Source of the DNA: Cellulosimicrobium cellulans
GTDB lineage: Bacteria; Actinomycetota; Actinomycetes; Actinomycetales; Cellulomonadaceae
NCBI RefSeq assembly: GCF_016907755.1
Contig: NZ_JAFBCN010000001.1
Span: forward strand, 2,790,001 to 2,854,000
Reading direction: 5' to 3'
Length of the DNA: 64,000 nt
Shown here: piece after piece, positions 60,251 through 62,747 of the stretch
Layout of the letters: each line of letters opens with the position of its first letter
Position numbering within the stretch: the stretch's first letter is position 1
The notes under the pieces: model-generated
Databases searched by the model: none
What the model saw: only the letters and a program-made list of their open reading frames with translations
What the model was told of the DNA's origin: nothing
Position numbers and translations under genes: made by a program

Positions 60251-61261
60251 TCATGCCCGCGCTCGTACGCCGTCGGCACGCCGCACCGGGCGGCTCGCCC
60301 CGCTGTCCTCCTCCCGGTCGAGGCGCGCCAGGAGAGCCGCGAGCGCCGCGGCGATCGGCTGTCCGGTCGCGTACTCGACGAACAGCCACTGCCCGGCGGG
60401 GTTGATCTCGAGGAACACGTAGTCGCCGTCGGGCGTGCGGCGCAGGTCCACCGCGCCGTACCAGAGCCCGAGCACCTCCATGAGGCGCAGGAGCCCGGTC
60501 GTGACGTGGTCCGGGAGGCCGTGCGCCGCGGTCGGGCAGTGGTGGGTGTCGACGCGGAAGTCGTACGCGTACCCCGACTCCTCGGTCCGCAGCTCGGCCG
60601 CGAACACGTCGGTGCCGACGACGGTCACCCGCACGTCCGAGCCCGCGACGGCCTCCTGGAAGATGACCGGCGCGTACCGCACGCTCTCGATGAGGTCGAG
60701 GTCCGCCTCGCGCACGGGGCGGGTCTCGCGCCACGTCGCGGGCGTGCCGCTGAACGGCTTGAAGATGACGCGGCCCGGCTCGCGGCGCAGGAACTCCCGG
60801 GCGCGGGCCGGGTCGTTGGTCATGCACGTGCGCGGCACGCGCAGCCCGAGGCGCGAGGCCACCTGGAGCTGCCACATCTTGCGCGAGCCCGCCTCGTCGC
60901 GGTCCGGGTCGTTGACCCACGTCGCGGGCAGGCACGACCACAGCCCGGACACCGCCGCGGCGACCTCCCCGTGGGCGAACCCGCGGTCCTGGGGCGAGCG
61001 GACGTCGTCGTGCAGCGCGAACGGCTGCGGGCGACGCCACCACATGGCGCGCAGCCCGGTGGCGTCGACGGCGCTCACGCCGTCGCCGTCGCTGTCGACC
61101 CAGTCGGCGCGCCACCTGGTCGCGTCCTGGGCGGACGTGAGCGACACCGCGCGCGGGGCGTGCCCGGTGTCGAGCAGGACGTGGGGAGCGTCGAGCTCGC
61201 CCAGGTGGCGGACGACCTCCGTGGTGTGGAGGTCGTCCGCGTGGGACACGATGCCGATCAT
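60251..61261 (-). CDS. ATP-grasp ligase (graspetide-maturase / MvdCD-like)
   Basis: A 336-residue ATP-grasp enzyme related to the ligases that cross-link ribosomal peptides (microviridin, plesiocin) by ester or amide bonds. Motifs: AMWWRRPQPF and LPATWVNDPDRDEAGSRKMWQLQVASRLGLRVPRTCMTNDP in the family N-terminus; ATP-grasp core GRVIFKPFSGTPATWRETRP, APVIFQEAVAGSDVRVTVVG, DFRVDTHHC, and the magnesium/ATP site GDYVFLEINPAGQWLFVEYATG. No short precursor peptide ORF is apparent beside it; instead it starts four bases after the stop of a serine protease gene with a long C-terminal tail, which may be its substrate. That pairing is the basis for a novel-system proposal. Confidence 0.88.
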   Translation of the reverse strand: MIGIVSHADDLHTTEVVRHLGELDAPHVLLDTGHAPRAVSLTSAQDATRWRADWVDSDGDGVSAVDATGLRAMWWRRPQPFALHDDVRSPQDRGFAHGEVAAAVSGLWSCLPATWVNDPDRDEAGSRKMWQLQVASRLGLRVPRTCMTNDPARAREFLRREPGRVIFKPFSGTPATWRETRPVREADLDLIESVRYAPVIFQEAVAGSDVRVTVVGTDVFAAELRTEESGYAYDFRVDTHHCPTAAHGLPDHVTTGLLRLMEVLGLWYGAVDLRRTPDGDYVFLEINPAGQWLFVEYATGQPIAAALAALLARLDREEDSGASRPVRRADGVRARA

Positions 61262-61265
61262 CGGG

Positions 61266-62747
61266 TCACTGCCCGGCCTGGAGCTGGGTCAGGGCCGCCT
61301 CGACGGCCTCGAGGGTCGCCCGCGCCTCGGCGACGGCCTCCACCAGCGCGCCGACGACGTCGACGGGGGCGCCCTCGTCCTCCTCGTCGACGAGCGACTC
61401 GGCGCCCTGGACGAACGGCCGCGCCCCGGCGAGCGCACCCGCCTGGACGAGCCGGCCGATCGCGGGGTTCACGACCGGGTCGAAGAGGTCGCCGGGGTCG
61501 AAGATCCCCTCCTGGAGCGTGTCCCCGGGTCCCGTGCCGACGTCGCCCGCGAACCCGGTCGCGACCGGGGTGTCCGTAGCGAACCGCGTGTCGGCCTGGA
61601 AGATCGAGTCCAGGGCGCGCGGGGTACCGCCCTGGTCCCGGAGGAACGACGTCCCGATCTGGTCGGCGACCGTGTGGGAGTCGGCCTGCTTGATCGTGAG
61701 CACGTCGACCGCCCGCGCCGTGTCGGCCGCGCGGAGCGTGCCGACCTGGTCGGCCGCCTTGACGGTCGCGATGACGTCCTGCGCCAGCGACGTGAGGACG
61801 TCGTCGGCGACGGCGGTGCGCGACCCGTGCGGCAGCGCCTGGAGCGTCGGCGACACCGCCCGGATGCCCGCGATCGCGGTCCCGAAGTTGGCGCCGGTGC
61901 CCGACGCGTTGCAGCCGCCGTTGGTGTGCACGCCCACGAGCTCGCCCGTCGGCCCGAGGATCCCGGACCCGGAGTTGCCGCCGAGCGTGTCGATGTCGTT
62001 GTAGCGGACCTGGTTCGTCGTGACGGTGGTCGCGGGCCCGGCCTCGACCCGCTTCGGCATCCCCGCCGGGTGGCCGATGATCGCGAGCATGTCGCCGACG
62101 GCCGGGTTGCCGGTCGCGACGGCGGTGAACCCGTAGGTGTTCCCCGGGTTGCCGCCCACGCGCACGACCGCCATGTCGAGCCCGCCGAGGCGGTACTCGA
62201 CGAGCGCGAGGATCGGGAAGCTCACCTCGGTGCGCAGCACCCCGCCAGGGTCCACCTGGTAGAGCACGTTGATGTGCATGCTCGTCGCGATCTGCTGCGG
62301 CGTGACGACCTGCATCGAGCCGTTCTGGCGGGGCAGGACCCACCCGTCGGCGCTCTGGTCGAACAGGTGCCCGCACGTGAGCACCAGGTCCGGGGCGATG
62401 AGCGTGCCGCTGCCCCAGCGGACGCCGTCGACGTTGCCGGGGTTGGTGAAGACGCCGCCGAGCCCGGTGTTCCACTGCACCTGGACGGCCTGCTTCTGGT
62501 GGGCGTTCACGTACGCCTGCGTGACGCCCAGGGTGCCGTCGTACTGCTCGACGGGCTGGGAGTCGTCGGTGGCGCCGCAGATGGACTCGAGCATCTCGGA
62601 GTACGTGGGCTCGTCGCCCGCGATGGACTCGAGCGTCAGCGGGATCCGCTCGGGGAGCGGCGGGTAGAGCGCGTCGACGGTGTCCGGCGTCTCCGGCACC
62701 TCGCGCCGGGTCGGCTTCCGGGACGTCGACTTCCTGGTTCCAGGCAT
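61266..62747 (-). CDS. Trypsin-like serine protease with repeat-rich C-terminal tail
   Basis: A 493-residue protein with no signal peptide. Residues about 70-300 form a chymotrypsin-fold protease with H127 (LVLTCGHLF), D191 (LGGLDMAVVRV) and S259 (TLGGNSGSGILGPTGELVGVHTNGGC). The N-terminal 60 residues are charged and the tail (about 305-493) has degenerate repeats, for example TVKAADQVGT at 328-337 and TVADQIGT at 359-366, many Asp/Thr/Lys residues, an FDPGDLFDPVVNP motif and a final helix (VVGALVEAVAEARATLEAVEAAL). Four bases separate it from the ATP-grasp gene. GAGGGGG precedes ATG 62747. Confidence 0.88.
   Translation of the reverse strand: MPGTRKSTSRKPTRREVPETPDTVDALYPPLPERIPLTLESIAGDEPTYSEMLESICGATDDSQPVEQYDGTLGVTQAYVNAHQKQAVQVQWNTGLGGVFTNPGNVDGVRWGSGTLIAPDLVLTCGHLFDQSADGWVLPRQNGSMQVVTPQQIATSMHINVLYQVDPGGVLRTEVSFPILALVEYRLGGLDMAVVRVGGNPGNTYGFTAVATGNPAVGDMLAIIGHPAGMPKRVEAGPATTVTTNQVRYNDIDTLGGNSGSGILGPTGELVGVHTNGGCNASGTGANFGTAIAGIRAVSPTLQALPHGSRTAVADDVLTSLAQDVIATVKAADQVGTLRAADTARAVDVLTIKQADSHTVADQIGTSFLRDQGGTPRALDSIFQADTRFATDTPVATGFAGDVGTGPGDTLQEGIFDPGDLFDPVVNPAIGRLVQAGALAGARPFVQGAESLVDEEDEGAPVDVVGALVEAVAEARATLEAVEAALTQLQAGQ

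What the first reader, a model, noticed from the sequence alone, without database searches (positions are those of the whole stretch)
60251..62747. Coupled serine protease and ATP-grasp ligase: possible undescribed peptide- or protein-modifying system
A graspetide-type ATP-grasp ligase starts four bases after an intact trypsin-like protease (H127, D191, S259) that has a long, Asp/Thr/Lys-rich repeat tail (residues about 305-493) and no signal peptide. No short precursor ORF is visible nearby. Known graspetide ligases act on dedicated short precursors; here the only coupled candidate substrate is the protease itself. The ligase might cross-link the repeat tail, making a modified protease or a protein-borne peptide that the protease later releases in cis. 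Family assignments are established knowledge; the substrate idea is inference.
Basis: partly seen in the sequence, partly recalled or inferred. Interest (0 to 1): 0.75.

Follow-up and report, generated by a model that had tools for sequence, protein, structure and literature searches.

The report
Enzymes with ligase-stapled repeat tails
A bacterial protease carries a floppy tail whose threonine-aspartate pairs look built to be chemically stapled by the ligase encoded next door, and the same kind of tail with the same kind of ligase turns up on several unrelated enzymes in many microbes, which points to a little-noticed way of modifying whole proteins.

Summary
In detail: an intact V8/trypsin-like protease (493 aa) and a graspetide-type ATP-grasp ligase (336 aa) lie 4 nt apart. 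The tail is an array of 12 [Thr/Ser]-x4-Asp units (2.8 expected; 0 of 2000 shuffles), then an RPFV motif and a C-terminal helix. In 60 aligned homologues the residues at least 90% conserved between positions 305 and 402 are exactly seven Thr-Asp pairs five residues apart. Of 61 loci in the ligase clade, 58 carry a tail-bearing protein (one a fragment) directly upstream; two are cut by contig ends, one lacks it. The cargo differs: trypsin-like, subtilisin, astacin, pappalysin, tyrosinase. The order is cargo, donor-acceptor repeats, PFxL-type motif, C-terminal segment. Some more distant ligases have short precursors with RPFxL at the N-terminus. A published graspetide synthetase is directed by RPFG and still works when its leader is moved to the C-terminus. 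Best reading: the ligase staples the enzyme's own tail, so the enzyme is the precursor. That would explain ligase branches for which a 2022 survey found peptidases but no precursors. Chemistry and function are untested; release of a peptide is unsupported.

The parts
61266..62747 (-). Protease with repeat tail, 493 aa (proposed substrate of the ligase)
61929..62414 (-). Trypsin-like (V8-type) catalytic domain, residues 112-273; H127, D191, S259
61542..61817 (-). Array of 12 [T/S]-x4-D units, residues 311-402 (proposed cross-link sites)
   Evidence: predicted disordered
61407..61421 (-). RPFVQ, residues 443-447: proposed C-terminal recognition motif
   Evidence: literature parallel RPFG
61272..61358 (-). 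C-terminal helix, residues 464-492
61262..61265 (-). 4-nt gap between the two genes
60251..61261 (-). Graspetide-type ATP-grasp ligase, 336 aa

Best explanation
The ligase is a graspetide synthetase whose substrate is the tail of the enzyme encoded directly upstream. It is recruited by the RPFV-type motif that lies behind the repeats (a natural C-terminal 'follower') and, using ATP, activates the Asp of each T/S-x4-D unit and joins it to the Thr/Ser five residues earlier. The product would be an array of up to about 12 small ester rings; in related loci Lys-Asp or Lys-Glu pairs would give amide rings. The enzyme most likely keeps its tail, so the end product is a whole enzyme with a stapled appendage. 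Best guess for its use: a rigid, degradation-resistant arm that controls or positions an enzyme made without an obvious signal peptide. Shown: gene pairing, conserved donor-acceptor spacing, conserved motif, swapped cargo, one ligase clade. Inferred: cross-linking, ring pattern, recognition by the motif, retention of the tail; function is a low-confidence guess.
For: Units: 12 vs 2.8 expected in the window tail; 784 of 1099 Asp in 98 homologous tails have Thr at -5; the residues of 90% or more conservation between 305 and 402 are seven T-D pairs. Motif: R443 and P444 in 60 of 60 rows. Cargo swap: 57 upstream tail proteins on five enzyme families plus two odd ones, and 120 listed tail homologues likewise. 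Adjacency: 58 of 61 clade loci, median gap 7 nt in 56 measured. Ligase: whole-length kin of MdnB, MdnC, AMdnB, CdnC, PsnB. Precedents in passages read: RPFG-directed ThfB works with a C-terminal leader (PMC13003496), ThfB can cyclise whole fluorescent proteins in engineered constructs (PMC12291112), CorB makes Lys-Asp bonds in KxxxD repeats (PMC13097080).
Against: No modification was measured. The window group's motif scores weakly in the general motif model (7.0 bits, E 2.6) and a model trained on tyrosinase tails finds only 19 of 53 assigned tails, not the window's kin. Exceptions: L075 and G080 have no tail neighbour. Ser is not enriched at -5 (0.75-fold), and other pairs also have preferred distances (A to D +2, D to T +4), though weaker. 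Three of the 12 units (375, 381, 387) are complete in only 18, 3 and 6 of 60 rows. The motif region is disordered in the model.
Confidence: 0.8

Rival explanations
1. Classical graspetide pathway in trans: the ligase modifies a short precursor encoded elsewhere, and the neighbouring protease processes it or gives resistance; the tail has another role.
For: Published readings of protease-synthetase neighbours say so: peptidases cutting other proteins (PMC8939145) or maturation/resistance (PMC13097080). Some more distant ligases do have short precursors (L098; L126-L132).
Against: Tyrosinase takes the protease's place in L042 and in 47 of 120 listed tail homologues. No motif-bearing short ORF near the window pair and no TIGR04186 match over cut-off in the genome. 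It does not explain the conserved T-D pairs or RPFV in the tail.
Confidence: 0.1
2. The tail is modified and then cut off: the protein is a carrier of a multi-ring peptide that the protease or another enzyme releases.
For: Graspetide precursors are normally processed (general knowledge); the cargo is usually a protease.
Against: Tyrosinase cargo cannot free the peptide itself; no conserved column between domain end and first unit in S1 homologues; no exporter recurred in a crude neighbour comparison whose ten largest clusters I looked at.
Confidence: 0.2
3. The tail is a binding or structural repeat (calcium or surface binding), and the ligase adds amino acids to it as RimK does, or does something unrelated.
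For: The ATP-grasp domain is shared with RimK (PDB E 7e-11); Asp-rich repeats are common in binding domains (general knowledge).
Against: Starts of successive units vary by 6 to 10 residues while the T-D distance stays five; the array is predicted disordered (pLDDT under 50 for 315-417); graspetide macrocyclases match far better than RimK (E 2e-59 vs 7e-11; 2e-26 vs 2e-14 by fold).
Confidence: 0.06

Closest known systems
RPFG-directed graspetides (fuscimiditide, ThfA/ThfB) and short precursors of Streptomyces loci L126-L132
   Same: Related ATP-grasp ligase; an R-P-F motif; Thr/Asp core
   Different: There the motif is N-terminal in a short precursor; here it lies behind the repeats at the end of a full enzyme. 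The C-terminal position is reported as engineered (PMC13003496, passages)
Corallotide (CorA/CorB, PMC13097080, section 7 and passages)
   Same: Large precursor with repeated donor-acceptor motifs (KxxxD), TIGR04187-type ligase
   Different: No enzyme cargo is described in the passages read; needs an oxygenase partner; Lys-Asp at distance 4 instead of Thr-Asp at distance 5
ATP-grasp branches 7 and 8 of PMC8939145 and group 32 of PMC13097080
   Same: Ligase next to peptidases of diverse families; YscW gene in branch 7 and in astacin loci here
   Different: The peptidases are read there as processing or resistance enzymes; membership of our clade in these groups could not be checked, as supplements were not readable
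V8-type glutamyl endopeptidases
   Same: Catalytic domain fold and triad
   Different: Long disordered Thr/Asp tail, RPFV motif and ligase partner

Membership tests
Graspetide synthetase (MvdC/MvdD/TIGR04187 ATP-grasp ligases) | Whole-length similarity, pre-ATP-grasp and ATP-grasp domains | tested here: met
   TIGR04187 residues 4-311, E 9.5e-69; PDB profile search E 2e-59 to 2e-33 to macrocyclases; the 32 best fold matches are structures of this family
Graspetide synthetase (MvdC/MvdD/TIGR04187 ATP-grasp ligases) | Score above a curated family cut-off | tested here: not met
   232 bits vs 350; six clade ligases score 212-263, while short-precursor ligase L098 scores 358.5
Graspetide synthetase (MvdC/MvdD/TIGR04187 ATP-grasp ligases) | Forms side-chain ester or amide bonds | not testable with these tools
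   needs mass spectrometry
Classical graspetide gene cluster | Dedicated short precursor with N-terminal leader | tested here: not met
   upstream gene is a 493-aa enzyme
Classical graspetide gene cluster | Phhx(1,2)h / RPF-type recognition motif | tested here: met
   present but behind the repeats; motif definition from PMC8939145
Classical graspetide gene cluster | Core rich in Thr/Ser/Lys donors and Asp/Glu acceptors | tested here: met
RimK-type glutamate ligase | Closest relatives are RimK/LysX enzymes | tested here: not met
   RimK is far below the macrocyclases
V8-like serine protease (S1) | Chymotrypsin fold with His-Asp-Ser triad | tested here: met
   activity and Glu specificity not tested

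The most novel reading that the evidence does not exclude
A transferable 'stapled tail' module exists across bacteria and at least one haloarchaeon: a disordered array of donor-acceptor units plus a C-terminal PFxL-type recognition motif, fused to unrelated enzymes (S1, S8, M12A, M43, tyrosinase and others) and cross-linked in place by a dedicated ligase clade. The modified enzyme, not a released peptide, is the product: a native modification that decorates full-size enzymes with tandem ester or amide macrocycles.
Probability: 0.6. Interest if true: 0.93.

Novelty: new variant of a known kind. Interest (0 to 1): 0.85.

Why it matters
It offers a direct answer to a published puzzle: ATP-grasp branches with peptidases of unrelated families but no precursor (PMC8939145). 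If the enzymes themselves are the precursors, mining tools that look for short peptides will tend to miss them, and graspetide chemistry becomes a modification of full-size proteins. It would also show that C-terminal recognition, reported so far as engineered (PMC13003496), is used in nature, and would provide portable tags for stapling proteins. One co-expression with an intact-mass measurement tests it.

Tried and rejected
Considered and rejected or set aside: (1) tail as RTX or solenoid repeat: unit starts are irregular while the T-D distance is fixed. (2) Cis protease inhibitor as the general role: tyrosinase also carries the tail; still possible for protease cargo. (3) A universal basic N-terminal signal: the first 25 residues have median net charge +2 in both protein sets; a K/R/S/T-rich stretch is visible in many S1 and some astacin cargos but not in tyrosinases, by eye. 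(4) A conserved third gene: YscW-like in some astacin loci; other recurring clusters among the ten looked at were confined to close relatives or looked like wrong-frame or antisense ORFs of GC-rich DNA; a first version mixed up minus-strand coordinates and was redone. (5) The merged protease-ligase ORF of L007/L039 (same contig region): the C-terminal helix and the ligase's first strand are missing, so an assembly error or deletion is as likely as a real fusion; not used as evidence, though its tail is among the 50 tails. (6) Anti-phage link: one weak PADLOC match of the protease, E 4e-4. (7) Literature: ten searches listed no paper that I could see stating that the peptidase is the precursor; six papers were opened in part (PMC8939145, PMC13097080, PMC12291112, PMC13003496, PMC10885120: passages or sections; PMC13039773: abstract and outline). 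The library holds open-licence papers only, supplements were not readable, and two papers I wanted (PMC8688276, PMC10443899) are not held, so an earlier description cannot be excluded.

Rows dropped or chosen: near-copies L025, L026, L027, L038 left out (50 of 54 tails used; L046, L049 and L061 had no tail entry there); L024, L025, L026, L061, L031, L032, L033 left out of the tree. A2 holds the window protein plus 59 of the 120 listed homologues, picked by me for coverage. One search kept the best 80 of 178 confirmed loci; searches list the best 120 of 687 and of 267; one search fetched 30 loci for 67 genomes with a match.

Full report
WHAT IS THERE. On the minus strand, a 493-aa protease (62747-61266) is followed after 4 nt by a 336-aa ATP-grasp ligase (61261-60251). 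The protease has a chymotrypsin-fold domain (Trypsin_2) whose best matches are glutamyl endopeptidases and related V8-type proteases by sequence and fold; H127, D191 and S259 are invariant in a 60-row alignment. The ligase matches graspetide macrocyclases along its length (5ig8 MdnB, 7m4s AMdnB, 5ig9 MdnC, 9bou PruB, 7mgv CdnC, 7drm PsnB; E 2e-59 to 2e-33; the 32 best fold matches) and RimK much less well. It scores 232 bits against TIGR04187 (cut-off 350).

THE TAIL. Residues 301-412 contain 12 places where Thr (10) or Ser (2) is followed five residues later by Asp; 2.8 are expected and none of 2000 shuffles reached 12; no other distance from 1 to 10 is in significant excess. Successive units start 6 to 10 residues apart, so the fixed quantity is the donor-acceptor distance. 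In 98 of 120 listed homologues with a scorable tail, Thr to Asp at distance 5 occurs 784 times against 144 expected; 784 of 1099 Asp have Thr at -5; Lys is enriched there (2.2-fold), Ser is not (0.75-fold), Ala and Val are depleted. Controls in the same call: other fixed distances exist (Ala to Asp +2, 416 vs 145; Asp to Thr +4, 478 vs 147; Lys to Asp +3, 95 vs 27) but are weaker. The shuffles ignore shared ancestry, so these z-scores are not independent evidence per sequence. In the 60-row alignment (47-94% identity to the window protein) the residues conserved in 90% or more between 305 and 402 are T311/D316, T319/D324, T328/D333, T337/D342, T343/D348, T366/D371 and T397/D402: seven pairs, each five apart. 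Over 12 units and 60 rows, 501 of 720 cells have donor and acceptor, 192 a gap at both and 27 anything else; units 375, 381 and 387 are complete in only 18, 3 and 6 rows. Gap placement by the aligner contributes to the 192. Behind the array come R443 and P444 (60 of 60), F445 (50 of 60) and V446 (55 of 60). AlphaFold2 gives pLDDT under 50 for 315-417 and 439-459 and a confident helix at 464-492.

THE SAME PLAN ON OTHER ENZYMES. A scan of one genome for each of 84,980 species with the ligase alignment confirmed 178 loci; the best 80 were kept. Of the 61 that fall in the ligase clade (L024-L082, L089, L096), 57 have a tail-bearing ORF directly upstream, L053 has a fragment of one, L048 and L058 are cut by the contig end, and L075 lacks it. 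In 56 measured loci the gap to the ligase is -4 to 126 nt, median 7. By Pfam on 20 of them and by similarity for the rest, the 57 cargos are astacin (25), S1 trypsin-like (21), subtilisin (4), M43 pappalysin (4), tyrosinase (1), a second S1-like type (1) and one unassigned. A protein search with a tyrosinase's tail alone gave 267 proteins; of the 120 listed, 47 classify as tyrosinase, 44 M43, 9 astacin, 8 S1, 7 subtilisin, 2 the second S1 type and 3 unassigned; one of the three, P0239, bears PF02012, PF15902 and PF13088 (BNR/sortilin type, names recalled). A PF-type motif lies within 140 residues of the C-terminus in 119 of these 120 and in 100 of the 120 listed S1 homologues; of the other 20 S1 proteins, 15 have a variant (RPLV, RPMV, RPYV, RPFVF or TFVQ) and 5 are truncated or frame-shifted.

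Wherever a tail was assigned, the order is cargo, repeats, motif, C-terminal segment. A motif model from 33 of these tails, scored on 8432 ORFs, has upstream tail ORFs in its first 48 places (two loci are held twice); this is partly circular, and the window's own group scores only 7 bits. In a stricter test, a model trained on 47 tyrosinase tails gives 20 hits at E<1 in loci L024-L103: 19 of the 53 assigned upstream tails, on five enzyme families and the unassigned cargo, plus the L053 fragment; it misses the other 34, including the window's close kin. Repeat types differ (T-x4-D; TLKFRDD; DPPKQL; ETIKER), but in 49 of 50 tails the best donor-acceptor distance has z>3: T-D+5 in 15, K-D+5 in 14, K-D+4 in 8, T-E+3 in 5, K-E+5 in 4, K-D+3 in 3. 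The best of up to 28 combinations was taken per tail, and in strictly periodic repeats any pair has a fixed distance, so the irregular T-x4-D tails carry most weight.

LIGASE TREE. On a quick tree of 74 ligases (SH-aLRT only) the tail-associated ones form one clade (55 rows, support 97, the exception L075 included); tail-bearing members come from seven phyla, among them Halorubrum. The cargo label needs 12 changes, two of which come from the contig-edge loci. Among more distant ligases, L126-L132 are preceded by ORF ends of the form [MV][RKQ]PF[AT]LNYARP...TTTSTAGS[KQ]THFDD, motif first and core last, and L098 by a 74-aa ORF with PFAARA. The arrangement in the window is the reverse. For several other distant loci no precursor was assigned.

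CO-OCCURRENCE. Among 99 relatives, eight genomes have the S1-tail protease with an adjacent ligase (own, G002, G006, G007, G009, G010, G021, G041); G001 has a protease fragment that runs to the end of the held sequence; G069 has a 33% identical trypsin domain with no such tail in its ORF; three further matches are weak. In 396 genomes of the phylum 67 have a ligase-like match, many weak; of the 30 loci fetched only those of the own genome and G174 show the tail, and G080's ligase has no tail neighbour. The system is sparse in its own phylum.

HOW IT WOULD WORK. PMC13003496 (passages): the synthetase ThfB is directed by a leader with the key tetrapeptide RPFG, and moving that leader behind the core lowers the rate only about two-fold. 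PMC12291112 (passages): ThfB can cyclise whole fluorescent proteins in engineered constructs. PMC13097080 (section 7 and passages): CorB, a TIGR04187 enzyme, makes Lys-Asp isopeptides in five KxxxD repeats of a ~22 kDa precursor. So the proposed steps are plausible: the ligase binds RPFV behind the array and closes Thr-Asp rings along it. I put 0.8 on the tail being the substrate. That it stays on the enzyme seems likelier than release, because a tyrosinase cannot free it, no conserved site lies between domain and array in the S1 family, and no exporter stood out among neighbours (crude). What the stapled arm does is a guess: stability, spacing or latency.

AGAINST. No modification was measured; the motif of the window group is weak in the general model; exceptions exist; published groups with neighbouring proteases may have predicted short precursors that I could not inspect.

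NOVELTY. The ligase family and chemistry are known. What I did not find in print (ten searches named under Tried and rejected, in a partial library) is the identification of the neighbouring enzymes as the precursors, a C-terminal recognition motif in nature, or the cargo swapping. PMC8939145 found no precursors for its branches 7 and 8 and proposed that the peptidases cut other proteins; a YscW gene, which it reports for branch 7, follows the ligase in three astacin loci scanned here, suggesting overlap. I rate it a new variant of a known kind.

The probability of the boldest reading went from 0.62 to 0.60, and that of the main reading is given as 0.8 throughout, because the stricter motif test reached 19 of 53 tails and the neighbour comparison was crude.

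Noticed in passing
L047, L056, L060 (downstream of ligase); L063, L077 by similarity: A YscW-like gene (PF09619) follows the ligase in astacin loci: three confirmed by Pfam, others by BLAST cluster. The window pair has none.
   Followed up: partly
L039:3840-5933 (same contig region as L007:340-2433): Protease tail and ligase read as one ORF; the C-terminal helix and the ligase's first strand are missing, so an assembly error, a deletion or a real fusion are all possible.
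   Followed up: partly
L029/L051, L031/L050, L032/L052, L033/L048: Several Cellulomonas genomes hold two ligase loci, one with S1 cargo and T-D repeats and one of the astacin group with Lys-Asp repeats (in L048 the cargo is cut off).
   Followed up: no
L083, L084, L118, L119: Nocardia-type ligases are preceded by a similar gene of about 155-165 aa; the L083 one has no Pfam match. Not a tail protein; possibly a partner or precursor.
   Followed up: no
L139 (upstream of ligase): Short ORF end with repeated TTLAI-EE motifs, looking like a multi-core short precursor.
   Followed up: no
L066:2266-3477 and P0153: Tail proteins whose N-terminal part has no Pfam match: perhaps precursors without an enzyme cargo.
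   Followed up: no
L025: A record titled Sphaerisporangium cinnabarinum carries a ligase 89% identical to the window's, as near as Cellulosimicrobium species; the genome may be mislabelled.
   Followed up: no
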